From Xenorhabdus griffiniae (GTDB taxonomy: Bacteria > Pseudomonadota > Gammaproteobacteria > Enterobacterales > Enterobacteriaceae): a stretch of DNA of 64,000 nucleotides. The position numbers and the translations under genes were made by a program. The stretch is from NCBI RefSeq assembly GCF_001028135.1, contig NZ_LDNM01000012.1, forward strand, positions 1-64,000, written 5' to 3'. Shown here one piece after another: positions 1 to 63,069 of this stretch. Below the pieces are notes generated by a model. That model was given only the letters and a program-made list of their open reading frames with translations, was not told the DNA's origin and did no database searches. Positions within the stretch are counted from its first letter, which is position 1; the number at the start of each line of letters is the position of its first letter.

Positions 1-707
1 CTCTTTACTCGAAGCAACCTGTTTATTTTTGACTAAAAAACATTCGTGATCTTGCCCTGGGGTTGGTATAGTTGTTTCGATAATTAATATAAGTATATTG
101 TCACATTATTGTGTTAATTCATGGTGTTCTAAATTTAGGACTTGCATTCACATAATTAGCACAGCACTCATGACCTATGTCACAAAAAAGAAAATTATTT
201 AATGCCATTTCATTCAATGCATATTATATTGAAGACGTATATTGACATGTTCTATTATATCAATATCCTCGTTTCTGGTAGTAGACGATTTTAATAATTT
301 ATAGAAGCCACATTGGTCGCAACCATTGTGGTTTCGTTAATTATTATAATAAAAAAAATAATTCATAAAAATAGTTATCCAATTTTCGCATCTGGTTAGA
401 TGTCTTATTTAAATAACCCTATAAAATTACGAGTCACGCTCATGCTCATGCTCATGCTCATGCTCATGCTCATGCTCATGCTCATGCTCATGCTCATGCT
501 CATGCTCATGCTCATGCTCTGAATATGAGATTTGATGTATTGCAATTAGAAAAGGTAATTTAACCAAAGAATTTAGTGTGTTTTTAAAACTTATACCTAA
601 CGGGTTTAACTTAAATGTTAAGTTTACTTTTTTCGTTATTGAATTAATAATGAAAGTAGTTAAATTAGAGCGCATTTAATGTGTTATAAAATGGATTAGA
701 GAAAGCA
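1..707. other. AT-rich leader region with no convincing gene
   Basis: No convincing coding region is seen before the gene that starts at 708. The stretch is very AT-rich. It holds a hairpin at 308-331 (10-bp arms with one mismatch, followed by TTT), which could be the terminator of a gene to the left, and a 13-copy hexanucleotide repeat at 438-515. A minus-strand open frame at 427-675 exists only because the hexamer has no stop in that frame; it shows no ribosome binding site and reads as a Glu-His run. Confidence 0.5.
438..515. repeat. Hexanucleotide tandem repeat (GCTCAT)13
   Basis: Thirteen uninterrupted copies of GCTCAT fill 78 bp, followed by a partial copy. On the minus strand the unit reads GAG-CAT, giving an alternating Glu-His tract in the frame 675 to 427. 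The array lies about 190 bp upstream of the small gene at 708. Perfect microsatellites of this length can change copy number by slipped-strand mispairing; a six-base unit keeps frame but alters spacing. It differs in sequence from the hexamer array at 4352-4436 in the same island. Confidence 0.95.
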
Positions 708-1928: not shown

Positions 1929-3098
1929 ATGAATGCACAAAATCAAATTTTAACATTACCAGAAAATCTTGGAGTGGCGATATTAACTGGAGGAGGACTT
2001 TGGGATGATTGGTTGGATATTAACGCACTGAACAAACTAGTGAATCATCCATTGCTTAATGCAATGCGCGAAGAAAGAATTACATTATCCGGAATGCGTT
2101 ATTTCCTGATCCAGCACTATCACTATTCTTGTCATTTCACCCGTTTTTTATGTGCGTTGATAAACCATCTGGATAACCTCGACGATATTCACTATTTAAT
2201 GGAAAATCTGCTTGAAGAAATGGGCGTCAACGATGACAGAAAAATTACCCATGCTGAGTTATTTCAACGCTCATTAGCGGCAGTAGGTGCTCGCGCTTGC
2301 GCGATTACGGCACTGTCGGAAACCACCTTTTTTGTTTCGTCAGTATTGAATTATTGTCGTTCAGGAGCAGTAGCTGATGGTTTAGCTGCGCTCTGTCTGG
2401 GAGCTGAAACGATTGTTCCTTTGATTTATAAACCCGTACTGCACGCGCTAACTTGTCTCGACATTAAGGAGCAGGGACTAGAGTTTTTCCGGCTGCATAT
2501 TGAAGAGGATGAAGAGCATGCAATCACTATGATGCATATTCTCCGTGAGTTGACTGAAAATAATCCTGAGCTGACGCAGCGTGTTAAGGATGTCGGACGT
2601 AACACGATATTGCTTCGTTGCAAAATGTTTGATGCTGTCTATAAGAATATTCAAGACGAAATTATTTCTGGCTCTGATGACTACTGTGTCTTTGAAAAGT
2701 ATGAGTCAAATGTACGAAGCTATTGTCGAAACTATCCAGCTATTTTTACTAAAGCGAGTAATGCGTTACTTACTGATCATAAAGGAAAACTATGGGTTGA
2801 TTTTCTATCAGGTGCGGGTTCACTGAATTATGGTCACAATAATCCGTTATTAAAAACACAGTTGCTTAATTATCTTGAGCAAGATGGCATAACACATTCT
2901 CTTGATTTATATACCAGCGCGAAACGCGAATTCATAGAAAATTTCAATCAACAAATCTTACAGCCACGCGGATTACGTTATCGTTTCCAGTTTACTGGCC
3001 CAACAGGCACCAACGCGGTGGAAGCAGCGATGAAAATCGCGCGTAAAGCTGCCGTCCAGTGCCTGAGTGACCAGTACCAAAGAGCCATCTTTCAGTAA
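1929..3098 (+). CDS. Heme-oxygenase-like diiron oxygenase fused to a truncated class III aminotransferase
   Basis: The start is well supported by the purine-rich stretch GGAAAGGAAGAGAAGGAAG directly before the ATG. Residues about 1-250 resemble the heme-oxygenase-like diiron oxygenase (HDO; also called iron-containing redox enzyme) fold: candidate metal ligands are the Glu in ENLLEEMG, the His in ITHAELF and the H-x3-D-x2-H element HIEEDEEH. After a short linker, residues about 260-373 match the N-terminus of EctB-type diaminobutyrate aminotransferases, with VDFLSGAGSLNYGHNNP and FTGPTGTNAVEAAMK. The match stops near nucleotide 3050; the last 14 or so codons are antisense to a phage primase, and the PLP-binding lysine region is missing. 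The HDO half could still be active; the transferase half should be dead. HDO enzymes act on amino- or fatty-acid substrates in natural-product pathways, so a lost biosynthetic locus is plausible. The substrate is unknown. Confidence 0.75.
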   Translation: MNAQNQILTLPENLGVAILTGGGLWDDWLDINALNKLVNHPLLNAMREERITLSGMRYFLIQHYHYSCHFTRFLCALINHLDNLDDIHYLMENLLEEMGVNDDRKITHAELFQRSLAAVGARACAITALSETTFFVSSVLNYCRSGAVADGLAALCLGAETIVPLIYKPVLHALTCLDIKEQGLEFFRLHIEEDEEHAITMMHILRELTENNPELTQRVKDVGRNTILLRCKMFDAVYKNIQDEIISGSDDYCVFEKYESNVRSYCRNYPAIFTKASNALLTDHKGKLWVDFLSGAGSLNYGHNNPLLKTQLLNYLEQDGITHSLDLYTSAKREFIENFNQQILQPRGLRYRFQFTGPTGTNAVEAAMKIARKAAVQCLSDQYQRAIFQ

Positions 3099-3536
3099 TT
3101 GCTGATCGGGGCATGGCAGCCCCTTGTTAGTCAGATAGTCGGATTGTCCGAAAGTAGTTTGAGCCACCAGCTTTTTAACTTTTTCGGCTATCAAAGGAGC
3201 CTCTGATTTCAGAGCCTCCTTTCTGGCAGGCTTGGGTTCTGGCAAAGGGAGGGCCAGCGCATCAGAAACAGCCTTTACCGCCTCAATGATCGTTATCCCT
3301 TTAGCCCTCATCAGTAAATCAAAGCCATCACCATGATTCGGGTTATCACACTGGCGACAATGCCAGTCACCGTTCCCGTGGTCATCCATGAAGTGAAAGC
3401 GGTCAGAGCCTCCACATATCGGGCAAGCACCATGCTTACCCTTTGCCGGAACATCTACCCCACAGGCAGACAGCAATCCTTGCCACTGCCCTTGCGCGGC
3501 TGCTTTTACCGTGCGAATATCAATATGGCTTACCAT
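2973..3536 (-). pseudogene. P4-type primase, 3'-truncated
   Basis: The first about 162 residues match the N-terminus of phage P4 alpha-type DNA primases: a zinc ribbon with GACPICGGSDRFHF, then WHCRQC, and a conserved helical segment after GDGFDLLMRAKG. P4 alpha proteins usually exceed 750 residues and add a Toprim primase core and an SF3 helicase. Here homology ends at about nucleotide 3050, where the frame runs antisense through the broken aminotransferase and stops at 2973. The catalytic core is gone, so this is a remnant. It follows the 101-residue phage gene at 3530-3835 with a 7-nt overlap, as in a P4-like early operon. The junction marks a deletion or recombination end of the element. 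Confidence 0.8.
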
Positions 3537-4249: not shown

Positions 4250-4350
4250 AGCGTAAGCCTCCTTTACGTTATTGGTTAGACGCCTCGATAGTGTTAGTAG
4301 CACTTCGGGGCGTTGTTGTTTTACATCTGATACAAATGTGTTGTACACTG

Positions 4351-5274
4351 TCAGACACAGACACAGACACAGACACAGACACAGACACAGACACAGACAC
4401 AGACACAGACACAGACACAGACACAGACACAGACACCTCGAGTATTACATATGTCAAACACAAATTTACCGAGAGGCAATAAACAAATTGCGTTCAGAGT
4501 TGAGCCACAATTGGAACAAGCTATGAGAGAAGCGATGAAGATTGATGGTGATGAATCTATATCTGCATGGATAAAAAGAATTATCCGCAAAGAGTTGCAA
4601 TCTCGCGGTATTGAGCAATAACCAACCAATGGACAATAAGTCCGGTAGTTAACCTCGTCAAAATTATTGACTTGGTTGACTGATCCTCTAAAAGAGGGCA
4701 AGTTAACTGATTGATTTATTTCATGACGCAAATATGCGTGATCCCAAAGGGTAGCATTCGCCGTGCTATCCTTTTCTTTTTGTACCTGACTAACTGTCAG
4801 TCGCAAATTCTGTGAGTAAATATCATTTACGCTCAAAGTTATTTGCGAGTAACTAAGAGTTACGCCCAAAGTCCGATTTTCGGGCATTGGATTTTGCATC
4901 GACGAAATTCGTCGGGACAAATGGTCACCAGTTTGCACACCGATATTATCGGCGCTCAAATTACAAGCAGACTGCAAATATGCCGTCTGCTTACTTTTCA
5001 AGCTATCATTGTAACCCATTGATTTATTCGAGGCCGTCACTTTGACCGCCGGAAACATTCCAGTATTTCCAGTTCCCAAAGTGAGGATGAATGGAAGCAT
5101 CAAAGAGTTACTTGGGTGTGCGAAAATATTCTCATACCCATCGGCTAAAATTTCAGCCGATGATTGAGCGAAACTTTTCGCTGAATGGTACTGAGCAAAA
5201 TATTTTGCCGAGGTCATTGGTTCAGTGACCCCGAAGCCAGCCAGTAGGGAATCATTCACTTGGTAGGTATTCAT
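4351..5274 (-). CDS. Unknown phage-island protein; C-terminal part doubtful
   Basis: The frame starts at an ATG overlapping the stop of the antirepressor gene by one base, which suggests translational coupling and supports the start. It runs 307 residues. The first about 150 residues (MNTYQVNDSLLAGFGVTEPM...) look protein-like and contain AKYFAQ, AKSFAQ and AEILAD elements whose codons coincide with DNA palindromes. The last third is antisense to a terminator, to the small plus-strand gene and to the hexamer repeat, and ends in a Val-Cys run. I do not recognise the family. The real product may be shorter, or the DNA may act mainly as structured RNA. Confidence 0.4.
   Translation of the reverse strand: MNTYQVNDSLLAGFGVTEPMTSAKYFAQYHSAKSFAQSSAEILADGYENIFAHPSNSLMLPFILTLGTGNTGMFPAVKVTASNKSMGYNDSLKSKQTAYLQSACNLSADNIGVQTGDHLSRRISSMQNPMPENRTLGVTLSYSQITLSVNDIYSQNLRLTVSQVQKEKDSTANATLWDHAYLRHEINQSVNLPSFRGSVNQVNNFDEVNYRTYCPLVGYCSIPRDCNSLRIILFIHADIDSSPSIFIASLIACSNCGSTLNAICLLPLGKFVFDICNTRGVCVCVCVCVCVCVCVCVCVCVCVCVCV
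4352..4436. repeat. Hexanucleotide tandem repeat (CAGACA)14 between divergent genes
   Basis: About 14 perfect copies of CAGACA cover 85 bp. They lie between the Icd-like gene (minus, start 4249) and the ribbon-helix-helix-like gene (plus, start 4451) and end only 14 bp before that ATG. No frame on either strand contains a stop, which creates artefactual Val-Cys, Ser-Val, Asp-Thr and His-Arg runs. A repeat in this position could set promoter spacing or leader length for both genes and vary by slippage. Confidence 0.95.
4451..4621 (+). CDS. Small ribbon-helix-helix-like phage protein
   Basis: A 56-residue open frame, MSNTNLPRGNKQIAFRVEPQ..., on the opposite strand to its neighbours. The layout is a short beta strand with alternating residues (KQIAFRVEP), then two predicted helices ending in SAWIKRIIRKELQSRG. 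This fits MetJ/Arc- or CopG-type ribbon-helix-helix proteins such as YlcI/YnfO-like phage proteins. A good Rho-independent terminator follows at 4746-4780, which supports real transcription. No strong ribosome binding site is visible; the upstream DNA is the CAGACA repeat. It may repress the divergent Icd-like operon, which is inference from its fold and position. Confidence 0.6.
   Translation: MSNTNLPRGNKQIAFRVEPQLEQAMREAMKIDGDESISAWIKRIIRKELQSRGIEQ
4657..5230. repeat. Dense run of short perfect hairpins
   Basis: Reading this stretch shows many close inverted repeats with loops of mostly 2-9 bases, about one every 20-50 bp. Examples: 4657-4671, 4685-4697, 4726-4739, 4786-4800, 4816-4830, 4849-4863, 4900-4914, 4940-4952, 4965-4992, 5036-5046, 5113-5140, 5139-5162, 5167-5182, 5195-5208 and 5212-5230. 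Stems are 4-8 bp and differ in sequence from one another, so this is a repeated shape, not a repeated sequence. It overlaps the unknown minus-strand frame. Confidence 0.6.
4746..4780 (+). terminator. Rho-independent terminator
   Basis: An 11-bp stem (AAAGGGTAGCA against TGCTATCCTTT, one G-U pair) with a 7-nt loop is followed by TTCTTTTT on the plus strand. It would end transcripts of the small gene at 4451-4621. It lies inside the minus-strand open frame 4351-5274, a sign that the C-terminal part of that frame may not be coding. Confidence 0.8.
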
Positions 5275-6098
5275 TAATTTGCCTCTACGCGCTGTGCTAG
5301 CCACTTTTGAGACAATCCTGTCAGCTTGTCCTTACGGGCGTGATAATCCATACCTAACTCAATCAGCGTGGTATTGGTCTGTTCCAGATAAGAAAGGTGC
5401 TCAAGCTGTAGCTCACTCATCGCATCACGAGGCTCACCAATAACACCATGCTGTTTCGCCCACTGTTTAGCTGTTAATCCAGCCAGAACAATACGGTTCA
5501 GCATATTTGATTCATTGGTGTAGTGGCGTGGTAGTGTCGTTTTACCTTGCTCTATACGTGCCAGTTCCAATGCTGAACACATGGGCTTAAAGTAGTTCGC
5601 TACTTTTAAACGTGATTTCAGCTCATTTCGTAGCTGTTTGGTTACTGCTGGGGCTACTTTGTGTAACGCTTCCTCACACTTGATAAAATACTGGCGGATT
5701 AAACGGCCTTGTTCGGTACGCTCAACCATGCCAAGTTCTTTGGCCATATTCAGAGATAGGAAATAATCTTTACTGCGTCTGTCACCCCCGCGCTTCGATC
5801 TCCATTGTTCGTTTTCTGCGCTTTGGTTCCCCCGTTTCGGGGAATCAAAGGTGAAAAAATCAACATCCTTAATAAAACTATATTCAGCAATACGCCCATC
5901 AATCCAAGTCGAAAAATCACGACCCACCCCTAATGCCTCATGTAATGATTTCGCACTTACACTATTCACTAATTGCCCGTTAATATTGCTTTGAATAATT
6001 GGCAACATCTCAGCAAAAGATAATTCGTTAATATCGTTCTGGCTGTTTTCAGAGTGAGCAAGTCCCTGACCATTTAAGGCCACCTTTTTAGATGTCAT
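5274..6098 (-). CDS. AntA/AntB antirepressor family protein
   Basis: A 274-residue phage regulator. Residues about 30-130 match the AntA/AntB domain: QLVNSVSAKSLHEALGVGRDF, then FSTWIDGRIAEYSFIKDVDF and the DYFLSLNMAKELGMVERTEQG signature, ending KCEEAL. The C-terminal half (about 150-274) is a helical region rich in Lys and Leu, like the KilA/antirepressor partner domains. Such proteins bind a phage repressor and relieve repression. It follows two AlpA-like genes and is coupled to the next frame by a 1-nt overlap. Its presence points to a control circuit borrowed from temperate phages. Confidence 0.85.
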   Translation of the reverse strand: MTSKKVALNGQGLAHSENSQNDINELSFAEMLPIIQSNINGQLVNSVSAKSLHEALGVGRDFSTWIDGRIAEYSFIKDVDFFTFDSPKRGNQSAENEQWRSKRGGDRRSKDYFLSLNMAKELGMVERTEQGRLIRQYFIKCEEALHKVAPAVTKQLRNELKSRLKVANYFKPMCSALELARIEQGKTTLPRHYTNESNMLNRIVLAGLTAKQWAKQHGVIGEPRDAMSELQLEHLSYLEQTNTTLIELGMDYHARKDKLTGLSQKWLAQRVEAN

Positions 6099-6116
6099 AT
6101 TTTTACCCTGTCTTAA

Positions 6117-6392
6117 TTAATTTGATTTTCGGCTATAGGGATTATTTACATTCTCTACTGTTGGTGGGTTACGTACCCACCATAATATATCGCTTAATAA
6201 CCATGCGCAGGAATTACGCCCAAAATGACAGCGAGGAGGAAATAAACCTAATCCCTCTAATTTATGGCAATGACTGCGAGATATACCGGATATTTTTTCT
6301 CGCTCCCTTTCTCTTATTCGCCTTTCACTTTCACCATAAGCGGAAAGAATATATTTCCGCTGTTCATCGGTAGGTAATATGAATTTTGACAT
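6117..6392 (-). CDS. AlpA-like transcriptional regulator (second copy)
   Basis: A 91-residue protein whose middle (ISRSHCHKLEGLGLFPPRCH...FGRNSCAWLLSDILWW) follows the AlpA pattern of a winged helix-turn-helix: S-R-S at the recognition helix, L...G.FP.....G, then a W-L-x-S-D/E wing. AlpA of P4-like islands activates excision genes. The match is looser than that of its neighbour at 6392-6607. The N-terminus carries a basic run (SERRIREREREK) that is unusual for the family. Start and stop touch its neighbours, so it is part of one operon. Confidence 0.65.
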   Translation of the reverse strand: MSKFILPTDEQRKYILSAYGESERRIREREREKISGISRSHCHKLEGLGLFPPRCHFGRNSCAWLLSDILWWVRNPPTVENVNNPYSRKSN

Positions 6393-6607
6393 TACATCAC
6401 CTCGCTGCGAGATTCAGCGATGCGTTGTGATATCCAGTCATCTATTTCTGACTCAATAAAAGCAACTGAACGAGTACCGATTTTGACTTGTTTAGGGAAT
6501 CGGTTATCTGCAATGAGTTTGTAGATCCATGCCTTGCCGTAACCGGTTCTACGCTGAACTTCGGGTAAGCGGATAAGATTTTCTTTAAGTGGTGTTATTG
6601 CTGGCAT
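6392..6607 (-). CDS. alpA: AlpA family DNA-binding regulator
   Basis: A typical AlpA-size protein of 71 residues: LIRLPEVQRRTGYGKAWIYK is the helix-turn-helix, followed by FPKQVKIGTRSVAFIESEID, the wing, and a DDWISQRI end. Members activate the integrase/excision genes of P4-like and CP4-57-like elements. It is first of the leftward operon (alpA, alpA-like, antirepressor). The ATG has a weak GAGTGC upstream. The symbol is used in the family sense only. Confidence 0.85.
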   Translation of the reverse strand: MPAITPLKENLIRLPEVQRRTGYGKAWIYKLIADNRFPKQVKIGTRSVAFIESEIDDWISQRIAESRSEVM

Positions 6608-6722
6608 ATTGCACTCCTGTTATCGAGTCCTTGATTTACCTTAGTGGACGTTTGTTGATGACAGGGAGAATATACAAAACTTATTTGGCGTTTTTCGTAA
6701 TATTACAAACTCAGATGTAATA

Positions 6723-7631
6723 TTACAGAACGATATTTTTTAACCAGCCTGATACCGTGTTTCCTGATGGTACGGTAAAACCTTTACTTTCAAGATCAAG
6801 CTTTATCTCACCATTATCAATATGGGAGCGTGGATTATTGGCGATATCCTCCCCATAATGAGCTGCTATTAGTGCATATATAAACTCTGCTTGTTTATTA
6901 GTCGTTTTAGATGATGCTTTTTTGCTGGCTGGCATACATATAGATACAAATTCATCTATATCCTCTTTTTTAATTGCAAAATATGCGTTTTCTGGCAATC
7001 CGATGCATGGAACAAAACTGTCATAAAGATTACCTTTAATCTCAACGTTTCTTATTTGCTCAAATCGCTCTATATGAGCCTTAAAGAATCCATTTTCTTC
7101 TTCGCTTTGAGACTGAGATAATTTCACCAATTCGATCATTTCTCGTTCAAAGTCTATTTTTTGGACAACCTGAAACTTTTTTTCACCATCTGCCAATATT
7201 ATTCCTTTAGTCTCATATAAAGATCTTTTGGGTTTCGGTAGCCCTTGCTCTTCACTGTATTTTTTTTCTGCCTCGTACTTAATAATTCCAATATGCAAAG
7301 CTGACCAGATGCCTTCAGTAAAAATTATTTTTTCACCAATTGGTGTTGCATGAATAATAGGTGTATCAGTCAACAGAGCTTCTTGACTAAGAAGATGAAT
7401 GTTTGATGTGATAGCTGTCTCTGGTTCGCTAAGTACATGGGACAATGTTTTACTCGTGATTTGCACTTCACGTATAAAGCAGCAAGAGTGAAAAAAGATT
7501 GATGGTTTCAACTCACCGTCAGCAATCAGGCGAGCTACGTCAGAAACACCGATATCATCATTAAGTGTTTTTCGTAAGTATTTTGCACATTCATTCAGGT
7601 TTAACCATTTTCTTTTCCCCAGTATATCCAA
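6723..7631 (-). CDS. Hypothetical prophage protein with HTH-like ends
   Basis: A 302-residue soluble protein. The N-terminus (KWLNLNECAKYLRKTLNDD...VSDVARLIADGELKPSI) looks like a DNA-binding helix-turn-helix that reads operon-like target DNA. The C-terminus (SKTTNKQAEFIYALIAAHYG...TVSGWLKNI) is a pattern seen in hypothetical proteins of enterobacterial integrative elements, also with an HTH flavour. There is no signal peptide or membrane segment. It lies between the integrase and alpA, where excision control or cargo genes normally sit. The function is unknown to me. Confidence 0.6.
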   Translation of the reverse strand: MDILGKRKWLNLNECAKYLRKTLNDDIGVSDVARLIADGELKPSIFFHSCCFIREVQITSKTLSHVLSEPETAITSNIHLLSQEALLTDTPIIHATPIGEKIIFTEGIWSALHIGIIKYEAEKKYSEEQGLPKPKRSLYETKGIILADGEKKFQVVQKIDFEREMIELVKLSQSQSEEENGFFKAHIERFEQIRNVEIKGNLYDSFVPCIGLPENAYFAIKKEDIDEFVSICMPASKKASSKTTNKQAEFIYALIAAHYGEDIANNPRSHIDNGEIKLDLESKGFTVPSGNTVSGWLKNIVL

Positions 7632-7829
7632 CTGCCAACCCCCATGATTTCCATGTCGTTATTTTGTTGTCTACTGAGGTTAATTTTACGTTTTAATCAT
7701 ATAGTTGCAAGTGTACAAAATCAGGTAGTTTTGTGGATAACTATTGAATGGTTTTTCCATTGTTGGCGTAATCAAAGAGCTTGGATGATTATATTTATTA
7801 ATATTTTAACTAGTCAGATCCCATGAGCA

Positions 7830-9044
7830 TCAAGCATGTTTCTTAAATTTACCGTGAATGACATTATCACCGTTCTCTAATGCTTCCATATAATCCGCAT
7901 ACCATTGCATCATTTCCCGGCGCCCCTCTAAATATTGGGCATGGTTATACGTGCCGCGAATAGAGTTCTTATCGACGTGGGCAAGTTGCGTTTCGATCCA
8001 CTCAGAGGGGTAATTTTGTTCGTGCAAAATAGTACTCATCGTGTGGCGGAATCCGTGGCTCGTTGCTTGTCCTGTGTAGCCAATTCGCCTAATTAATAAA
8101 TTTAATGCCATTTCACTCATAGGCTTATTTGCATCATTCCTGCCTTGAAAAACATACTTGCCTTGTCCTGTAATCGGTTTTAGCTGTTTTAAAATAGCAA
8201 TAGCTTGATTTGATAAGGGAACAATATGAGGACGGCGCATTTTCATTTTTACAGCAGGTATTTCCCATTGCGCTTTATCAAAATCAATTTCTGACCATTC
8301 AGCTTTACGCAATTCACCAGGACGGGCACCAATTATCATTTGTAATCGCATCCCCATTTTTACAATAAAACTTCCTGTATAGGCATTTAAGGATTTATAG
8401 AACTCAGGGATTTCATCAACAGTTAAAAATGAATAATGTTCTTTTTTATGTGGAGCAAAGGCAGACACTAAATCAGGTGCGGGATTATACTCAGCTCTTC
8501 CTGTCACTATTGCATATCGCCATACCTCCCCACAGCGTTGACGCACTTTTCTGAGTTTCTCAGTCGCCCCCCGATCATTCATTCGTGATAAAACAGACAT
8601 AAGCTCCATTGGCTTAATTTCAGCGATAGGTCTATTACCTATATAGGGGAAAACATCGTTTTCAAATGTTTCCATCATTTCTTTGGCATAAGAGACTGAC
8701 CATCTGTCTACACGTTTCTCATACCATTCACGCGTTATGTTTTCAAAGGTATTTTCTATCAAGTTTGCTGCGGATATCTTTGTAGATTTTCTTACGTCGC
8801 TGGGATTAATCCCATTAGCAACTAATTTCCTTGCTTCGTCACGTTTGGTTCTGGCCTCGGTGAGTGTTACTACCGGATAAACACCTAATGAAATCATTTT
8901 AGTTTTACCCGCGAATTGATAACGATAGCGCCAGCCTTTGGAGCCATTGGTATCAACCAATAAAGATAGCCCGTTACCATCCGCCAGCGTATAGGCTTTT
9001 TCTTTTGGTTTGGCTCGTTTGATTACCAAATCTGTTAGCTTCAT
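7830..9044 (-). CDS. int: P4-type tyrosine integrase
   Basis: A 404-residue site-specific recombinase. The N-terminal DUF4102 arm-binding domain (MKLTDLVIKRAKPKEKAYTL... to about residue 85) is typical of P4/CP4 integrases. A SAM-like core-binding domain follows, then the catalytic domain with Arg in ARPGELRKAEW, His-x-x-Arg in SHGFRHTMS, and Tyr in RGTYNHAQYL. All key residues are present and the length is normal, so it may still be active. The gene lies 174 bp from the tRNA-Arg 3' end, the usual arrangement for an element inserted in that tRNA. It can act only if the partner attachment site survives; I see none in this window. Confidence 0.95.
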   Translation of the reverse strand: MKLTDLVIKRAKPKEKAYTLADGNGLSLLVDTNGSKGWRYRYQFAGKTKMISLGVYPVVTLTEARTKRDEARKLVANGINPSDVRKSTKISAANLIENTFENITREWYEKRVDRWSVSYAKEMMETFENDVFPYIGNRPIAEIKPMELMSVLSRMNDRGATEKLRKVRQRCGEVWRYAIVTGRAEYNPAPDLVSAFAPHKKEHYSFLTVDEIPEFYKSLNAYTGSFIVKMGMRLQMIIGARPGELRKAEWSEIDFDKAQWEIPAVKMKMRRPHIVPLSNQAIAILKQLKPITGQGKYVFQGRNDANKPMSEMALNLLIRRIGYTGQATSHGFRHTMSTILHEQNYPSEWIETQLAHVDKNSIRGTYNHAQYLEGRREMMQWYADYMEALENGDNVIHGKFKKHA

Positions 9045-9218: not shown

Positions 9219-9293
9219 TGGCGTCCCCTGCAGGAATCGAACCTGCAACTAGCCCTTAGGAGGGGCTTGTTATATCCGTTTAACTAAGGGGAC
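9219..9293 (-). tRNA. argW: tRNA-Arg(CCT)
   Basis: A complete cloverleaf can be drawn from 9293 down to an encoded CCA at 9219-9221: the acceptor stem GTCCCCT pairs with AGGGGAC, the anticodon loop holds CCT, and the T arm contains GGTTCGATTCC. The gene matches the sequence of enterobacterial argW, a well-known phage integration site. The 3' end faces the integrase, so the element probably used this end as its attB. The position next to mlaA marks the boundary between island and backbone. Confidence 0.95.
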
Positions 9294-47519: not shown

Positions 47520-47551
47520 CGCTCTCCGCTTGGCTGATGAGGAAAGGCTAC

Positions 47552-49069
47552 ATGTGCGGTATTGTCGGTATCGTCGGTTTTACACCGGTTAACCAGTCGA
47601 TTTATGATGCATTGACGGTGCTTCAGCACCGTGGACAAGATGCAGCAGGTATTGCAACTATTGATGGTAACAATGAGTTTCGTTTACGTAAGGCTAATGG
47701 TTTGGTCAAAGATGTGTTTGAAACACGGCACATGTTACGTTTACAGGGAACCGTCGGCATTGGACATGTCCGTTATCCTACGGCGGGCAGTTCCAGTGCA
47801 TCTGAAGCGCAGCCCTTTTATGTGAATTCTCCTTTTGGTATCACGTTGGCACATAACGGCAATCTGACAAACGCACATGAATTGAAAAAAATGCTGTTTG
47901 AAAATGCCCGCCGTCATGTCAACACCACCTCAGATTCTGAAATTCTACTGAATATTTTTGCCAATGAATTAGCCCAGTTTCCCCATTTCCCCTTAGCGCC
48001 TGATGATATTTTCTCGGCAGTCGCAAAAATGCACAAAAAAATTCGTGGCGCTTATGCTTGTGTTGCCATGATTATCGGGCATGGAGTGGTGGCTTTTCGT
48101 GATCCACATGGCATTCGTCCTCTGGTGCTGGGAAAGAAAACACTGGAAGAGGGTCGCCATGAATACATGGTGGCATCGGAAAGTGTGGCGCTGGATACAT
48201 TGGGTTTTGAGTTCCTGCGTGATGTGGCTTCCGGGGAAGCGATTTATATCACTGAAAACGGGCAACTGTTTACTCGCCAGTGTGCAGAAAATCCGTCATT
48301 AACACCTTGTTTGTTCGAATTTGTCTATTTCGCTCGCCCGGATTCCTTTATTGACAAGATTTCGGTCTATAACGCCCGGTTGCGGATGGGACGGACATTA
48401 GGGGAAAAAATTGCCCGTGAATGGGAAGATTTACAGATTGATGTCGTTATTCCCGTACCGGAAACCTCTTGTGATATCGCCCTGGAAATCGCCCATATTC
48501 TGGATAAACCCTATCGTCAGGGATTTGTCAAAAACCGTTATGTAGGGCGTACCTTTATCATGCCTGGTCAGCAGGAGCGTCGTAAATCCGTTCGTCGTAA
48601 ACTGAATGCTAATCGCGCTGAATTCCGGGGTAAAAATGTTTTGCTGGTGGATGATTCCATCGTCCGTGGAACCACGTCTGAACAGATTGTTGAACTGGCG
48701 CGTGAAGCGGGCGCTAAGAAAGTCTATTTTGCTTCGGCGGCACCGGAAGTTCGCTTCCCGAATGTTTATGGTATTGATATGCCGAATGCCAATGAACTGA
48801 TTGCTCACGGCCGGGAAGTGGATGAAATTCGTCAGATCATTGGGGCCGATGCCCTGATATACCAAAACCTCCACGATCTTGTCCAGGCTGTCCGGGAAGA
48901 AAACCCGGATATTGAAAAATTCGAATGCTCCGTATTCGATGGTATCTATGTCACGAAAGACATTGACCAGTGTTACCTCGACTATCTGGAAAACCTGCGC
49001 AAAGATGATGCCATGAAAGTGCGTGGCCAGAGCGAAATAGAGGATCTGGAAATATATAATGAAGGATAA
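47552..49069 (+). CDS. purF: Amidophosphoribosyltransferase PurF
   Basis: PurF makes phosphoribosylamine from PRPP and glutamine, the first step of purine synthesis. The ATG at 47552 ([10 protein letters not shown]) exposes the catalytic Cys2 after Met removal; an upstream start would hide it. Length 505, as in E. coli. The PRPP-binding [19 protein letters not shown] and the glutaminase segment GHVRYPTAG are present. Confidence 0.98.
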
Positions 49070-52262: not shown

Positions 52263-55200
52263 TTAAATTTGTAATTCAGCTATGGCCGATGCTAACCCTT
52301 GAACGAAAGGCTGACGCATAATGGTGATGTGATCACCAGATAACGTCTCGGAGATAACTTCCCCGGTTACCCGCGTTTTCCATCCATCAATAATGCTTTC
52401 GGCAGAGATATGTTGTTCTTCATACTCCTGGTTATCGCTGGCCAGAAACAGGTGGAGTCTCCCTGAATAGCGTTCCTGCGGTTGATAAGTCGCCAAAGAT
52501 TGGGTCTTGAAGACATGTAAATAAGCAGCGATTTCCTTAGATTCAAGTTGAGGAGGTAAGAGTTCCTCTTCAATTAAACGAAGTCGCAAGTTATCGAATT
52601 GCTCTTCTTCTGTCATGAATTGGAATTGTTCTTCAGTAAAGTTTTCCTCTGCCCCCGCCAATGCAGCAAGCACATTGCCAAACTCGGCCAGCCAGCGGCT
52701 ATTGGACCATTCTGATTCGCGCCTTTGGGTTAAACCCTCTGGCGGGGATTCACTATCGACTAAAGCCAGTAAGCCAATGCTTTCACCCTGTTGGACGAGT
52801 TGGCGGGCCATTTCGAATGCGAGCCAGCCTCCGAAAGAGTGCCCAGCTAAATAATAAGGGCCATTGGGTTGAACTTTCTTAAGAAAGTCGATCATAACGC
52901 TGGCCATTGCCTCAAGGCCGTTCACCTCAAGGTATGATGGAGGATCGCTGCGTCCATCTAACTCAGGTGATTGCATACCCCAAACGGAATAAGCCCCTTC
53001 CAATGCTGTGGCCAATTCCCGCAAATAGAGCACATGTCCTCCGGCACCGGGCGCAAAGAACAGCGGTGTTGCTTTGATGTTCCGTGACAGGCTGACCATA
53101 GAACCAACATGGATATTATCGTGATCTTCAATGGCCCGGGCTTGTTCTTTGATAGTGGTAAACGACATCAGGCTCGCCATCATATTCTGCTGAAGCCCTA
53201 GTTTTTCTATTGCTAAGGCGCTGGCTTTCAAAATAAGCAGTGAATGGCCTCCTAACTCAAAGAAATGGTCATGACGGCTGACACGCTCTAAACCAAGCAG
53301 ATCCTGCCAAATCTGAGCCAGGGTTATTTCAACCTCACCTTGAGGGGCCTCATAATTACGCGCTACGATGGCAGATTGATCGGGAGCAGGAAATGCCTGA
53401 CGGTCGATTTTACCATTAGCGGTAAGCGGGAAAGCGTCAAGAATGACAAATGCACTGGGTAGCATAAACTCGGCAAGTTGTTGAGCAAGCTGCTGACGCA
53501 GTTCACCGGGAACCAAGTTTGCACCGGATTCAGGCTGAACATAGGCGATAAGACGTTTATCATCATGGGTTATTTCTCTAACCAAAACAATGGCTTCCTG
53601 AACTCCCTGACATTGCGCCAGCCGAGTTTCAATTTCCCCCGGTTCAATGCGGAAACCCCGGATCTTGACCTGAAAATCATTGCGCCCCAGATATTCAATC
53701 GCGCCATCGGGCAGCCAGCGGCCCAGATCGCCGGTTTTATACATACGGGCATCGGGCTGTTCACTAAACGGATCTGCCACAAATTTCTCTGCGGTTAAAT
53801 CCGGGCGATTGAGATAACCCCGCGCCACCCCTGCGCCACCGATATGGATCTCACCACTGACGCCAATAGGCACCGGCCGCCCGTGCGGATCAAGAATATA
53901 AATACGGCTATTGGGCAGCGGATAACCAATCGGGATAACGTCCGTCATTTCAGGCGAATCTTGACCGTTATCAGTGAGGGTTAAGGTGGTGGCAATCACC
54001 GTGGTTTCGGTAGGGCCATAAGAGTTAATCCAGCGGCAGGATTGGGTTTCTGGTATAGACTGCCAACTCAGCAAATGACGCAGTTCCGCTTTTTCACCAC
54101 CGACGATAACGGTGTGCAGGTATTGGCCGAAACCACTGTGCCCCGCCATCATTTCCTGTACCCAGTGATGCCAGAAGGCGGTGGGCATATCCATAATAGT
54201 GATTTTCTGCTCATTTAGCAGATCGACAAATTCTGCATCCGGTACACGGATATGGGCAGGGCGCAGAACCAGAGTGGCACCGGCGGCCAGAGTAGGGAAA
54301 ATATCGGATACCGAAGTATCAAAGGCGATGGTCGCAAATTGCAGGATACGATCCCCTAATTGTGGCTCGCTGGTCTGGTGCTGCGCATGGATAAAGTTCA
54401 CCACATTGCGGTGCTCCAGCATCACGCCTTTGGGCTGTCCGGTGGAGCCGGAGGTATAGATGATGTAGGCCAGATGGTGCGGTTGAAGCTGAACATCAGG
54501 ATTATGAACCGGCTGGTTTGCCACGTGATTTCGGTGGCTTTCATCATCCAGCAACCAGACGGGCATGTCTGATATTGGCAGCAGTCCCTGCAAATGTTGT
54601 TGGGTCAGCAATAACACCGGCTGGCTGTCCGACAGCTGATAAGCCAGGCGTTCGGCCGGGTATTCCGGGTCGAGCGGCACATAACCGGCCCCCGCTTTAA
54701 GGATAGCGTACAGGCCGATAATCAAATCCAGACTGCGGTCAACACAGATAGCGATGCGATCATCAGGGCGCACGCCAGAAGCGATCAGCTGGTGAGCCAG
54801 TTGGTTAGCGTGGCGGTTTAGCTCTGCATAACTCAGTTCGCTCTCACCAAATACCAACGCAAGCGCATCCGGTGTGCGTGCTGCCTGTTGTTCAAACAGT
54901 TGGTGAATTAAGGCGTCTTGCGGATAGGTGACTACGGTATCGTTAAAGGTTTCCAGTAGTTGAGTACGTTCGGCCAGTGGCAGGATGTCGATAGCGTGGA
55001 TAGGTTGCTCCGGCGCATATTGCAGTGCGGCCACAATCCCGTCTAACGCTGTCTTCATATAGGCATTAATACGCACTGGATTAATTTGCTGGCTGCATTG
55101 GGTAGTCAGCGCAAATCCATCATCAAAATCATCGACATCCAGCGACAAGGGGTAGTTACTGCGCTCTTCACTGTCCAGCTCCTGAATACCGTCCCAGGCC

Positions 55201-58200
55201 GGTGAACCGGATTGCTCCTCGTTACGCGGGCTGTGGCGGAAATTAAGCAGGCTGTTAAACAGCGGCAATGAGGCTGGCACACCGCTGCACCGCTGGGCAA
55301 TCGCCAATGGGGTCTGTTCATGATCCAGCAATTCACTCAGGCGCTGGTAGGTTTCCTGTACCGCCTGTTTTACGGTACGAGCCTGTAATTGAATACGGAC
55401 TGGCAGGGTATTGATAAACATCCCCAGCACCTGAGGGGCACCTATACCGCCCTGTAATCGGCCCAACAGAACAGTACCGAATACCACATCTTCACGGCCA
55501 CAGCATTGTGCCAATACCTGTGCCCAGGCCACATGGAACAGTACAGCCGGACTGATACCCAACTGGCGGGTGCAATCCCGGAGCTGTTGTGCCAGTTCAT
55601 CATCTAACGTGACGATATCTTCCACGATTTTAGCGTGCTTATCGCGGCTGTTCCCCTGCACATCCAATAACCCGAACGGCAGAGTCGGTGCTTCCACGTC
55701 GCCCAGTAACTGCTGGAAATAAGCCTGATGCACTTCAATCGGCACCTGACGGGTCTGGGCAATAAAATTGCGGTAAGGCAACGGGGCAGGCAGAGACGCT
55801 TCTTCACCCAGGATCAGCGCCTGCACTTCGCTGAAAATAATTTCCAGTGACAGATGGTCACAGACCAGATGGTGGTGCAACAGACTCAGCCACCACTGAT
55901 CGGTGTCAGGCTCCTGAGCGATATAGGCGGCCAGTAATGGTGCCTGCGTAATATCTAACCGTATGCTGTCCGGATCGGTCAGACGCCGGAGCTGGCTTTC
56001 AGCACTTTCTCCTGCGGATAACGTCAGCTCTGTGATCGGCAGGGGCGCATGACGGCAGACCACCTGCACGGGGAGCGGAAGCTCCTGCCAGTGGAAGGCA
56101 CTGCGTTGAATATCGTGCCGGTCAATTACCCGCTGCAACGCCTGCAAGAAACTCTCCAGCCGTGTCCGGCTGTCAAAGTGCATCAGGATATTTTCAAGGT
56201 AAGTGTCACCGGTTTCTGCCAGTAAATGGTGGAACAGAATGCCTTCCTGCAAGGGGCCAAGCGGGTAAATATCCTGAATATTGGCGACACCGCCCGGGAC
56301 ACGGTCAACAATCTGGTCAATTTGGGGCTGGGTTAAGGTTACCAGCGGCAGCATAGCCGGCGTAATACGCTGGCTGTCTTCGCGGATCAGGTTAGGCGGA
56401 ATAGCTATTGCCTGCGCATCTTGCTCACTCTTCTGATGTAAGCGGGCGCTCATGGCTGCCAGCGTGGGGGCCGCGAAGACCGCGCTGACCGCCAGAGACA
56501 GCCCTTGCTGGCGTAACTGTTCGATCAGGCTGACCACCAGCAGGGAATGGCCGCCCAGTTCGAAGAAATTGTCATGGCGTCCGACCTGTTCCAGTTCCAG
56601 AATCGATTGCCAGACGGCCGCCAGTTTCTGTTCGGTTTCGCCCTGTGGTGCTTCATATTCACGGCTGACGATAGCGTGCCGATCCGGTGCCGGCAGGGCG
56701 TTACGATCCAGTTTACCGTTGGCAGACAGCGGGAAGGCATCCAGCATCACAAAGGCAGCAGGCAGCATATATTCCATCAGGCGGGTACGGAGTTGTTCAC
56801 GCAAATCGGCCGGTTTTAATGTGATGCCGGTTTTGGGGATCACATAGGCAATTAAGCGCTTGTCACCGGTTGCTTCTTCACGGGCGATCACCACGGCATC
56901 GCGGACGCCCTCGCAAGCCACCAGTTGGGTTTCAATTTCCCTCGGTTCAATGCGGAAGCCCCGGATCTTGACCTGAAAATCATTGCGCCCTAAATATTCA
57001 ATCGCGCCATCGGGTAGCCAGCGCCCCAGATCGCCGGTCTTGTACATACGGGCATCGGGCTGTGTGCTAAACGGATCCGCCACAAATTTCTCTGCGGTTA
57101 AATCGGGGCGATTGAGGTAACCCCGCGCCACCCCTGCGCCACCGATATGGATCTCACCACTGACGCCAATAGGCACCGGTCGGTCGTGCGGATCCAGAAT
57201 ATAAATACGGCTATTGGGCAGCGGATAACCAATCGGGATAACGTCCGTCAATTCAGGTGAATCTTGACCGTTATCAGTGAGGGTCAAGGTGGTGGCAATC
57301 ACCGTGGTTTCGGTAGGGCCATAAGAGTTAATCCAGCGGCAGGATTGGGTTTCCGGATGAGACAGCCAGCTAATCAAATGGCGGTACTCCGCTTTTTCAC
57401 CGCCCACAATAAGGGTATGCAGAGATGGGCTGAAACCACTGCGCCCTGCCATCATCTCCTGTACCCACAAGTGCCAGAAGGCCGTTGGCATATCCATAAT
57501 GGTGATTTGCTGTTCACGCAGGAAGGTGACAAAAGTCATATCCGGTACACGGATATGGGGCGGCCGCAGAACCAGAGTGGCACCGGATGCGAGGGTGGGG
57601 AAAATATCGGATACCGAAGTATCAAAGGCAATGGTCGCAAATTGCAGGATACGATCCCCCGCCTGGGGTTCGCTGGTCTGGTGCTGGGCATGGATAAAGC
57701 TCACCACATTGCGGTGCTCCAGCATCACGCCTTTGGGCTGTCCGGTGGAGCCGGAAGTATAGATAATATAGGCCAGATGGTGCGGTTGAAGCTGAACATC
57801 AGGATTATGAACCGGCTGTTTTGCCACGTGATCCCGGTGGGCTTCATCATCCAGCAACCAGACGGGGATGTCTGATACTGGCAACAGTCCCTGCAAATGT
57901 TGTTGGGTCAGCAATAACACCGGCTGGCTATCCGACAGTTGATATGCCAGGCGTTCGACGGGGTATTCCGGGTCGAGCGGCACATAGCCGGCTCCCGCTT
58001 TAAGGATCGCGTACAAACCAATAATCAAATCCAGACTACGATCAACACAGATTGCCACGCGATCATCGGGGCGTACGCCAGAAGCGATCAGCTGGTGAGC
58101 CAGTTGGTTAGCGTGGCGATTCAGTGCCGCATAACTCAGTTCATTCTCATCAAAGACCAATGCAATTGCATCCGGTGTGCGTGCTGCCTGTTGTTCAAAC

Positions 58201-61200
58201 AGTTGGTGGATTAGGGTGTCTTGCGGATAGGTGACTACGTTATCGTTAAAGGTTTCCAGTAACTGAGTGCGCTCAGTTAGTGACAGGATGTCGATTGACT
58301 CAATGGCTTGTTCAGGCGCATATTGCAACGCGGCTACAATCCCTTCTAACGCTGTCTTCATATAGGCATTAATGCGCACCGGATTAATTTGCGGGCTGCA
58401 TTGTGCGGTGAGTGCAAATCCGTCATCAAAATCGTCCACATCCAGTGATAAGGGGTAGTTACTGCGCTCTTCACCCTCGATCTCGTCAATACCTTCCCAG
58501 GCCATTGCAGCCACTTGTTCATCTTCGCGTGGGCTATGACGAAAATTAAGCAGACTGTTAAACAGTGGCAATGGTGCCTGAATACCACTGCAACGTTGGG
58601 CAACCGCCAGAGGTGCCTGCTCATGTTCCAGTAGTGCGGTTAACTGCTGATAAGTTTCTTGTACTGCCTGCTTGACGGTACGTGCCTGTAACTTAACGCG
58701 AATAGGTAAGGTATTAATAAACATCCCCAGCACTTCGGCGGCACCCATCCCGCCCTGTAACCGTCCCAACAGAACAGTACCAAATACGACATCATTCCGA
58801 CCACTGCATCGCGCCAGCACCTGTGCCCAGGCCACATGAAACAGTACGGCCGCACTCATCCCCAATTGACGGGCGCAATTACGGAGATTTTGGGCCAGCT
58901 GGCTATCCAGCGTGAGAACGTTTTCCACTATCTCATTGAGACCGCCACCTTGAACGTCAAGCAACCCGAACGGCAGAGTAGGTTCTTCCACATCACCCAA
59001 TAATTCGCGGAAGTAGTTCTGATGAACCTCCAAAGGTACATTGCGGATCTGCGCGATAAAGTTTCGGTAAGGCAGTGGTGTAAGTAACTCTTCACTGTCC
59101 CCCAAAAGCAGGGTTTGTATTTCACTGAATATCATATCCAGTGATATGTGATCACACACTAAGTGGTGATACAACAAGGAGAGTAGCCATTGATCGGAGG
59201 CGGGATCTTTGGCTATATGAGCAGCTAACAGAGGTGCTTTAGTCATATCCATCCGTATTGCACGGGGATCGGTGAGGCGGCGTAGCTGGGTTTCTGGGGC
59301 TTCCTCTGCCGATAGTGTGAGTTCAATCATTGGCAATGGTGCATGGCGATAGACGATTTGTACTGGTTTAAGAAGCGCTTTCCAGTAAACGGCGCTGCGC
59401 AGAATATCGTGCCGGTCAATTACCCGCTGCAACGCCTGCAAGAAACTCTCCAGCCGTGTCCGGCTGTCGAAAATCATCAAATGGTTGTCCAGATAGAGAT
59501 CACCTTCCGTTTCCAGCAAATGGTGGAACAGAATACCTTCCTGCAAGGGTCCCAGTGGATAAATGTCCTGGACGTTGGAGATACCGCCTGTTACATGGGA
59601 AACAATCTGATCTATCTGGTCTTGGGTCAATGCCACCAGCGGCAGCATATCTGGCGTAATGACGGAACTGTCTTCTCTAATCAGGTTAGGCGGTACGTCC
59701 TGTAGGGGGATAGCCTGAGTGTTATTGTGACGGATTAGGGCGCTCATGGCCGCCAGGGTAGGAGCAGAGAAGACCGCGTTGACATCCAAAGACAGGTCGT
59801 GAAGACGAAGTTGCTCTATCAAATTGACCACGAGCAGGGAATGCCCGCCCAGCTCAAAGAAATTGTCTTGTCGCCCAACGTGTTCCACATGCAACAGGGA
59901 TTGCCAGATTGCGGCCAGTGTTTGTTCAGCTTCGCCTTGTGGCACTTCATATTCACGGCTGACAATAGCGCTCCGATCTGGCACCGGCAGGGCGTTGCGA
60001 TCCAGTTTGCCGTTGGCGGACAGCGGGAAGGTATCCAGCATCACAAAGGCAGCGGGCAGCATATGCTCCATCAATCGGGTGCTTAGTTGCTTGCGTAATT
60101 CAGCCGGACTGAGTGTCATACCGGTTTCCGGGATCACATAGGCGATTAAACGCTTATACCCCGTTTCTTCTTCACGGGCGATCACCACGGCATCGCGGAC
60201 GCCGTCGCAAGCCACCAGTTGGGTTTCAATTTCCCCCGGTTCAATGCGGAAGCCCCGGATCTTGACCTGAAAATCATTGCGCCCCAGATATTCAATCGCG
60301 CCATCGGGTAGCCAGCGGCCCAGATCGCCGGTTTTATACATACGGGCATCGGGCTGTGTGCTAAACGGATCCGCCACAAATTTCTCTGTGGTTAAATCCG
60401 GGCGATTGAGATAACCCCGCGCCACCCCTGTGCCACCGATATGGATCTCACCACTGACGCCAATAGGCACCGGTTGCCCTTGGGTATCCAGAATATAAAT
60501 ACGGCTATTGGGCAGCGGATAACCAATCGGGATAACACCGTTGAGATGCAGTGGACTTTGGTGATCCAATTTCAGGGTGGTGGCAATTACCGTGGTTTCG
60601 GTAGGACCATAAGAGTTAATCCAGCGGCAGGATTGGGTCTCCTGATGAGACAGCCAGTTGATTAAATGGCGGTGCTCCGCTTTTTCACCGCCCACAATAA
60701 CGGTATGCAGAGATGGGCTGAAACCGCTGCGACCTGCCATCATCTCCTGTACCCACAGGTGCCAGAAGGCCGTCGGCATATCCATAATGGTGATTTGCTG
60801 TTCACGCAGGAAGGTGACAAAAGTCATATCCGGTATCCGGATATGGGCAGGACGCAGAACCAGAGTGGCACCGGATGCGAGGGTGGGGAAAATATCGGAT
60901 ACCGAAGTATCAAAGGCGATGGTCGCAAATTGCAGGATACGATCCCCCGACTGGGGTTCGCTGGTCTGGTGCTGGGCATGGATAAAGTTTACCACATTGC
61001 GGTGCTCCAGCATCACGCCTTTGGGCTGTCCGGTGGAGCCGGAGGTATAGATGATGTAGGCCAGATGGTGCGGTTGAAGTTCCATCGAATTGGGGTCAGG
61101 ATTATGAACCGGCTGGTTTGCCACGTGATTTCGGTGGGTTTCATCATCCAGCAACCAGACGGGGATGTCTGATACTGGCAACAGTCCCTGCAAATGTTGT

Positions 61201-63065: not shown

Positions 63066-63069
63066 TTAA

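What the first reader, a model, noticed from the sequence alone, without database searches (positions are those of the whole stretch)
1929..3098. Diiron oxygenase fused to an EctB-like aminotransferase, broken by a phage element
One polypeptide joins a heme-oxygenase-like diiron oxygenase (HIEEDEEH and further candidate ligands) to a class III aminotransferase of the EctB type. I do not recall this fusion as a described system. The enzymes of the HDO family often do unusual chemistry on amino acids, and the aminotransferase would supply or use an amino substrate. Here the transferase half is cut at about 3050, so this copy is a relic, but intact relatives could mark an undescribed pathway.
Basis: partly seen in the sequence, partly recalled or inferred. 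Interest (0 to 1): 0.7.

Follow-up and report, generated by a model that had tools for sequence, protein, structure and literature searches.

The report
Broken antibiotic-pathway enzyme, intact in relatives
This piece of a Xenorhabdus-like genome is the broken remains of a natural two-in-one enzyme (an iron oxygenase joined to an enzyme that makes an unusual amino acid), and intact versions in other bacteria sit in a conserved, apparently undescribed gene cluster that probably builds a small peptide antibiotic.

Summary
Window 1929-3098 is one 389-residue frame: a complete heme-oxygenase-like diiron (HDO) domain with all six expected metal ligands, then only the first ~120 residues of an EctB-type diaminobutyrate transaminase, cut near 3046 beside a truncated phage primase. 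The fusion is real: intact fusions occur in Photorhabdus (4 of 12 genomes searched) and on a 38-kb Pantoea agglomerans plasmid (two records). In two Photorhabdus loci read, the same chain also carries an ATP-grasp-like ligase. Pseudomonas fluorescens HKI0874 has the parts split differently (HDO-cupin; EctB-ligase). The five loci read share one operon: ATP-grasp-like ligase, PaaA/MccB-like ThiF, TauD oxygenase, GNAT, second ATP-grasp, PurD-like ligase, MFS exporter. Among 40 HDO loci, a close EctB occurs only in the four with this operon. Best reading: the fused enzyme makes L-2,4-diaminobutyrate and oxidises it, free or ligated, for a ligase-built small peptide. Product and HDO reaction are unknown. 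The window copy looks like a recent relic; the five other operon proteins searched for gave no orthologue in its genome. Kind: new variant of known HDO/ATP-grasp clusters (e.g. mangotoxin).

The parts
1929..3098 (+). 389-codon frame: HDO domain + N-terminal fragment of EctB-type aminotransferase; the last ~15 codons are not homologous to the relatives
1929..2678 (+). HDO domain, complete (residues 1-250); predicted all-helical heme-oxygenase-like fold
   Evidence: Pfam PF14518 at 57-219; AF2 pLDDT 90.8; Foldseek best CtCADD E 3.1e-8
2496..2519 (+). Helix motif H190-I-E-E-D194-E-E-H197 carrying three of the six predicted metal ligands (others E97, H108, E160)
   Evidence: alignment to CADD; counts over 32 HDO rows (window + 31 of the 40 loci): E97 32, H108 32, E160 32, H190 32, D194 31, H197 32
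2688..3050 (+). N-terminal fragment of the EctB-type transaminase (residues 254-374); the PLP lysine motif lies well beyond the break
   Evidence: TIGR02407 match 254-374; the lysine motif AKSxSGYG is at residue 515 of the intact Photorhabdus fusion L046
3046..3107 (.). Junction: homology to the fusion ends at 3046-3049; homology to phage primases begins between about 3050 and 3107, depending on the family matched
2973..3536 (-). Truncated phage primase, N-terminal part only (zinc ribbon)
   Evidence: PHROG 510, E 1.5e-28, profile 13-163 of 667; Pfam Zn_Ribbon_Prim
5274..9044 (-). Remainder of a P4-like element (label recalled): AntA/Ant (5274-6098), two AlpA-type genes (6117-6392, 6392-6607), a frame without PHROG match (6723-7631), tyrosine integrase (7830-9044), beside tRNA-Arg (9219-9293)

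Best explanation
The window holds a recent relic of a fused biosynthetic enzyme. In its intact relatives the C-terminal half is an EctB-type transaminase, expected to make L-2,4-diaminobutyrate (DABA) from aspartate semialdehyde and glutamate (inferred from family). The N-terminal half is a diiron HDO that would oxidise DABA, or a DABA-containing peptide, at the amine-bearing side chain (inferred; N-oxygenation or desaturation/C-C cleavage are the likeliest). The product passes to a circularly permuted ATP-grasp-like ligase, which in two Photorhabdus loci is part of the same chain, and a second ATP-grasp adds further residues. A PaaA/MccB-like ThiF enzyme activates a carboxylate, a TauD enzyme hydroxylates, a CapA/MslH-like protein may epimerise, a GNAT may protect the producer and an MFS pump exports the product (all inferred from family). 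The whole would make a small, non-ribosomal, ligase-built antimetabolite peptide. In this Xenorhabdus-like host the operon was lost and a P4-like phage remnant now abuts the cut gene. Shown: fusion, operon conservation, domain families, conserved ligands, truncation. Not shown: substrate, HDO reaction, product, activity.
For: Intact fusions: Pantoea plasmid, 666 aa; Photorhabdus triple-fusion frames of 1139 and 1174 aa and a 687-aa double fusion; 4 of 12 genomes of the Photorhabdus genus. The EctB halves of four relatives pass the TIGR02407 equivalog cut-off (606-624 bits vs 552.2). tblastn on 40 HDO loci: a close EctB (61-68%) in 4 of 40, and exactly those 4 carry the permuted ATP-grasp, ThiF, TauD, GNAT, ATP-grasp and PurD-like proteins. 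Rearranged fusions in P. fluorescens (HDO-cupin; EctB-ATP-grasp) tie the three activities together. The five fused HDOs form one clade, support 100/98. Nearest solved structures of P. thracensis operon proteins: ThiF to PaaA (E 9.6e-33), TauD to FrbJ (4.4e-34), CapA-like to 8gq9 (6.1e-18); of the L046 EctB half: DABA transaminase 9s1q (4.2e-136). NCBIfam's one family match for the CapA-like protein is MslH epimerase, far below its cut-off (86.7 vs 700 bits). Precedent: HDO + ATP-grasp in mangotoxin (PMC13185094).
Against: No product, substrate or activity is known. In P. fluorescens the HDO is fused to a cupin, not to EctB, so HDO and EctB need not act on the same molecule. The P. thracensis copy lacks four residues, including the Asp ligand, in the HDO helix, so the HDO may be dispensable or broken there. 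The PaaA-like ThiF suggests a ribosomal peptide, although no convincing precursor ORF was found. The permuted ATP-grasp is named on weak Pfam matches only (below curated cut-offs in P. thracensis and P. fluorescens, none at E 0.001 in L046). The full-fusion model was too poor to test channelling. The PurD-like member passes the real PurD cut-off (392.8 vs 288 bits) and could be a resistant copy rather than a pathway ligase.
Confidence: 0.58

Rival explanations
1. The HDO acts late, on a ligated peptide and perhaps on a residue other than DABA, as MboA does in mangotoxin; EctB merely supplies one building block and the fusion only fixes stoichiometry.
For: MboA oxidises an Arg residue within a tripeptide (PMC13185094, part 1 of 3 of the results). 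In P. fluorescens EctB is fused to the ligase while the HDO is separate.
Against: In the Photorhabdus, Pantoea and window copies the HDO is joined to EctB itself.
Confidence: 0.27
2. The operon makes a modified ribosomal peptide of the pantocin A / microcin C7 kind, built around the PaaA-like ThiF enzyme, with DABA chemistry as tailoring.
For: The ThiF protein's best solved relative is PaaA, E 9.6e-33, then MccB.
Against: A search for small ORFs in operon gaps and upstream found only matches of at most 15 aligned positions between genera, read as chance; the gaps inside the operon are 84 bases or less in the four loci measured. Two ATP-grasp-type ligases argue for ligase-built peptides.
Confidence: 0.1
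3. The operon is a form of a known cluster, such as that of pantocin B (an arginine-pathway inhibitor of P. agglomerans).
For: Same host species for one copy; pantocin B's cluster is likewise AT-rich (35.15% GC, 13 ORFs; PMC11350110 passages) and ours is 38.5% GC.
Against: The paper reports pantocin B only in Pantoea: Eh318 and two P. ananatis strains, whereas this operon lies in Photorhabdus, Pseudomonas and two other P. agglomerans strains. Its gene content (supplement) could not be read here. Pantocin B's methylsulfonyl group (recalled) has no obvious counterpart enzyme here.
Confidence: 0.05
4. The truncated window gene still works as a stand-alone HDO in a new role, rather than being a relic.
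For: The HDO domain is complete with all ligands, and substitution rates are those of intact copies (pN 0.157 against L046; intact pair L046-L048 0.190).
Against: Orthologues of the five partner proteins searched for were not found in its genome, and the gene abuts a decayed phage element. The same rates are expected if the loss is recent.
Confidence: 0.08

Closest known systems
Mangotoxin pathway (mboABCDEF; HDO acetylenase MboA with ATP-grasp ligases), PMC13185094
   Same: HDO encoded with stand-alone ligases that build a short antimetabolite peptide (abstract and part 1 of 3 of the results read)
   Different: MboA acts on arginine in a tripeptide; 'ectB', 'diaminobutyr', 'aminotransferase', 'fused' and 'ThiF' do not occur in that paper's main text
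SznF-type HDO-cupin N-oxygenases
   Same: HDO fold; the sister-branch protein of P. fluorescens HKI0874 and seven further relatives scanned are HDO-cupin proteins (L052, L054, L056, L057, L058, L060, L061)
   Different: In this clade no cupin was found and the C-terminal partner is EctB, with a ligase beyond it in two Photorhabdus loci
EctB, diaminobutyrate-2-oxoglutarate transaminase of ectoine synthesis
   Same: C-terminal half of intact relatives passes TIGR02407 and has the lysine motif
   Different: Fused to an HDO and placed in a ligase operon in which no ectoine synthase was seen
CADD / BesC / HrmI / FlcD
   Same: Best-known among the structure and sequence matches of the HDO domain
   Different: Only 16-20% identical; their reactions differ from one another, so none predicts this one
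PaaA (pantocin A) and MccB (microcin C7)
   Same: Best solved relatives of the operon's ThiF protein
   Different: No convincing precursor peptide gene found

Membership tests
Heme-oxygenase-like diiron oxidases/oxygenases (HDO) | HO-like helical fold | tested here: met
   AF2 pLDDT 90.8, pTM 0.88; Foldseek to CtCADD, HrmI, BesC, FlcD, UndA
Heme-oxygenase-like diiron oxidases/oxygenases (HDO) | 3 His / 3 carboxylate ligand set | tested here: met
   E97, H108, E160, H190, D194, H197 align with CADD's set (CADD ligand numbers recalled); of 32 rows (window + 31 of 40 loci) all keep five of them and 31 keep D194
Heme-oxygenase-like diiron oxidases/oxygenases (HDO) | Ligands converge on two metals; O2-dependent activity | not testable with these tools
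   Model coordinates not available; no assay
EctB diaminobutyrate transaminase | Passes curated equivalog cut-off (TIGR02407, 552.2 bits) | tested here: met
   Relatives L046, L043, L049, L048: 621, 617, 606, 624 bits. The window fragment alone gives 190.6 bits, not met because truncated
EctB diaminobutyrate transaminase | PLP lysine in AKSxSGYG motif (role recalled) | tested here: met
   Present in L046, L047, L048, L049 and the Pantoea protein; absent from the window copy, which ends before it
[quoted passage not shown]
   Met in the five relatives; not met in the window, where none lies beside the gene
SznF-type HDO-cupin | C-terminal cupin | tested here: not met
   No cupin match in the window protein or in the Photorhabdus EctB fusions scanned, L046 and L048
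Pantocin A / microcin C7-type RiPP | Precursor peptide gene | tested here: inconclusive
   No convincing small ORF shared between genera in operon gaps or upstream; a distant or very short gene is not excluded
Intact prophage inserted at tRNA-Arg | Duplicated tRNA end (att) at the far side | tested here: not met
   No exact repeat of the tRNA region longer than 12 bases on either strand of the window

The most novel reading that the evidence does not exclude
The HDO-EctB(-ATP-grasp) chain is a self-contained production line: it makes diaminobutyrate, performs a new HDO oxidation on it to create a reactive or otherwise unseen amino acid, and ligates it into a short antimetabolite peptide of an undescribed family shared horizontally by Photorhabdus, Pantoea and Pseudomonas, with a relic in a Xenorhabdus-like host.
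Probability: 0.35. Interest if true: 0.75.

Novelty: new variant of a known kind. Interest (0 to 1): 0.52.

Why it matters
HDOs do some of the least predictable chemistry known on amino acids, and their substrates are usually hard to guess. Here the fusion partner points to the likely substrate: the HDO is physically joined to the enzyme that should make it and, in two Photorhabdus loci, to the ligase that should use it. That makes one specific, cheap test possible (diaminobutyrate or its peptides with one protein and O2) and marks an apparently undescribed antibiotic-type operon present in three genera, with a relic in a fourth.

Tried and rejected
A fusion made by assembly error or chance is rejected, since the same joint occurs in independent genomes. 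A phage gene is rejected: a motif-limited scan of viral contigs gave no HDO relative, and the five matching phage records cover mainly the transaminase part, 12-44% of the query. A second copy, or the rest of the operon elsewhere in the own genome, was not found: the triple-fusion query found only the window fragment for the HDO, 25-36% matches to its transaminase part, and nothing for the permuted ATP-grasp part; ThiF gave three matches of 30-36% identity, taken as housekeeping relatives but not checked; TauD none (which the tool itself calls weak evidence); second ATP-grasp two matches of 24-30%; aldolase none. CapA-like, GNAT, PurD-like, MFS and amidase were not searched in the own genome. 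Genome surveys: in 295 family genomes and in 30 genomes of the window's genus only the window's match spans both halves; in 369 class genomes the HDO part matched 3, its own included.

The first ORF script picked antisense frames in several GC-rich loci and missed 8 of 40 HDOs; the counts used come from the tblastn repeat, in which all 40 match. There L084 also has a 23% EctB match, counted as distant and not as part of the operon. The ligand counts and the tree use 31 of the 40 loci; nine were left out as near-duplicates before the count (L064, L066, L068, L070, L072, L073, L074, L076, L077). The structure of the whole fusion is too poor to use. Papers: eight searches showed no paper on this fusion, judged from titles and abstract beginnings; passages were also seen of PMC13108848, PMC11350110, PMC4010436, PMC7744662 and PMC12250964. 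Most subscription journals and all supplements were not readable. PMC13185094 says that at least 25 HDO/ATP-grasp cluster types exist, shown in its supplement, so this operon may already be among them.

Full report
OBSERVATION. Window 1929-3098 is a single 389-residue frame. Its first ~245 residues are a complete Haem_oxygenas_2 (HDO) domain. Residues 254-374 match only positions 2-122 of the 412 of the EctB profile. The window lies at the start of a contig of a 4.18-Mb genome in 230 contigs. Its purF-type gene (window 47537-49069; named by eye) is 86% and 84% identical in DNA to two Xenorhabdus genomes (those of L058 and L061) and 81% to Photorhabdus thracensis, so the host is taken as Xenorhabdus or a close relative (inference).

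THE BREAK. DNA similarity to the intact relatives runs to 3046-3049. Downstream lies a P4-like element on the other strand: a truncated primase (homology begins between about 3050 and 3107, depending on the PHROG family), Ant, two AlpA-type genes and a tyrosine integrase beside tRNA-Arg. The primase lacks its C-terminal part and no exact repeat of the tRNA region longer than 12 bases was found, so deletion or rearrangement is likelier than insertion. The loss looks recent: substitution rates against Photorhabdus (pN 0.157, pS 0.783 for the HDO part, window vs L046) resemble those between intact copies (0.190 and 0.706, L046 vs L048).

RELATIVES. tblastn of the fragment against 72,556 plasmid records gave 359 records with a match, of which two cover at least 80% of it. 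Both are 38,088-base P. agglomerans plasmids at 61.5% identity. Their gene encodes one 666-residue HDO-EctB protein; one record's annotation starts inside it, near the end of the HDO half. A scan of one genome per species (84,980) with an HDO alignment gave 40 loci (the scan needs short motifs, so it is not exhaustive). tblastn of the Pantoea operon proteins on these 40 found an HDO in 40, a close EctB (61-68%) in 4, and the permuted ATP-grasp, ThiF, TauD, GNAT, ATP-grasp and PurD-like proteins in exactly the same 4. Those are Photorhabdus sp. CRCIA-P01 and P. namnaonensis (triple fusion HDO-EctB-ATP-grasp, frames of 1139 and 1174 aa), P. thracensis (HDO-EctB 687 aa, ligase separate) and P. 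fluorescens HKI0874 (HDO-cupin 410 aa, then EctB-ATP-grasp 912 aa).

ANATOMY OF THE OPERON. Pfam and NCBIfam were run mainly on the P. thracensis proteins; the other loci were compared by similarity. Order: HDO-EctB, circularly permuted ATP-grasp (weak Pfam matches only), ThiF, TauD, GNAT, CapA-like (not found in the P. fluorescens locus), ATP-grasp (NCBIfam matches include dapdiamide synthase DdaF and PylC, below cut-off), PurD-like (passes TIGR00877, 392.8 vs 288 bits), MFS, amidase. The amidase was seen in Pantoea and in two Photorhabdus loci; the stretches read for L047 and P. fluorescens end before its place. A class II aldolase follows on the other strand in Pantoea; degenerate aldolase pieces follow in two Photorhabdus genomes, and P. 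fluorescens HKI0874 has a 66% copy on a contig of another length. Nearest solved structures: ThiF to PaaA and MccB, TauD to FrbJ, CapA-like to 8gq9 (that this entry is MslH is recalled; NCBIfam's one match is the lasso-peptide epimerase MslH, 86.7 bits against a cut-off of 700), EctB to 9s1q. Operon gaps are 84 bases or less in the four loci measured, and small-ORF matches between genera span at most 15 aligned positions, against a ribosomal precursor inside the operon. The Pantoea operon is 38.5% GC with flanking plasmid parts at 48-51%, which suggests horizontal gain.

METAL SITE. The HDO model has pLDDT 90.8 and pTM 0.88; Foldseek's matches include CtCADD (best, E 3.1e-8), HrmI, BesC, FlcD and UndA. 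Alignment to CADD gives E97, H108, E160, H190, D194 and H197. Over 32 HDO rows (window and 31 of the 40 loci), five of these are kept in 32 of 32 and D194 in 31 of 32; the exception is P. thracensis, which lacks four residues of the motif. Distances could not be measured.

HISTORY. In a tree of 33 HDO domains the five EctB-fused ones form one clade (100/98). The window groups with the two triple-fusion Photorhabdus proteins (98/87). The sister pair (94/78) is the P. fluorescens HDO-cupin and a Pseudomonas HDO beside another ThiF. The eight cupin rows of the tree shown by Pfam make HDO-cupin a plausible earlier state, replaced by EctB once. This direction is inferred.

MECHANISM. Shown: fusion, operon linkage, families, conserved ligands, EctB halves above the equivalog cut-off, truncation of the window copy. 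Inferred: DABA is made by EctB; the HDO oxidises DABA or a DABA-containing peptide; the ATP-grasp enzymes build a short peptide; ThiF, TauD and the CapA-like protein tailor it; GNAT and MFS protect and export. The two orders, HDO before or after ligation, cannot be separated here. The mangotoxin pathway (PMC13185094; abstract and part 1 of 3 of its results read, plus a term search) is the closest documented logic.

NOVELTY. No paper seen in the listings describes the fusion (titles and abstract beginnings). The 2026 HDO review (PMC13108848, passages seen) has no occurrence of 'fusion', 'fused', 'aminotransferase' or 'diaminobutyr' in its main text. PMC13185094 mentions at least 25 HDO/ATP-grasp cluster types, so the kind is known; this variant appears undescribed.

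Noticed in passing
L048 10001-10753 (Photorhabdus thracensis): The HDO half lacks the four residues IEED inside the ligand helix, including the Asp ligand, although the rest of the operon has open frames: a natural variant or a second decaying copy.
   Followed up: partly
L038 (G064), Xenorhabdus-genus genomes G685/G686 and several Photorhabdus genomes: A stand-alone EctB-like enzyme (~50% identical). In L038 it lies beside a SidA/IucD-like monooxygenase (recognised by eye), a carrier-protein/cupin gene and an AMP-ligase, which looks like a different cluster; the neighbourhoods in the other genomes were not read.
   Followed up: no
L035, L037 (Photorhabdus-genus genomes G233, G138): Another HDO of this group, free or fused to an AMP-binding ligase (811 aa), in a cluster that by eye holds a DHQ-synthase-II-like gene, an aldolase and two flavin hydroxylases.
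   Followed up: no
L050 7571-11985 (Pseudomonas sp. HMWF021): The sister relative's partner in the tree, an HDO beside a ThiF-family protein and a DUF3182 protein, without EctB in the stretch read: possibly a simpler cousin pathway.
   Followed up: no
L083 9965-11565 (Aquabacterium): A related HDO directly beside a class II aldolase 52% identical to the Pantoea operon's aldolase, suggesting that the aldolase belongs to HDO pathways.
   Followed up: no
window 430-520 and 4350-4437: Long perfect six-base tandem repeats (GCTCAT and CAGACA types), one within the phage element; both runs read through as open frames.
   Followed up: no
window 52263-63969: A large non-ribosomal peptide synthetase (by eye; 3600 aa frame plus a 299 aa frame beside it), separate from this finding.
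   Followed up: no
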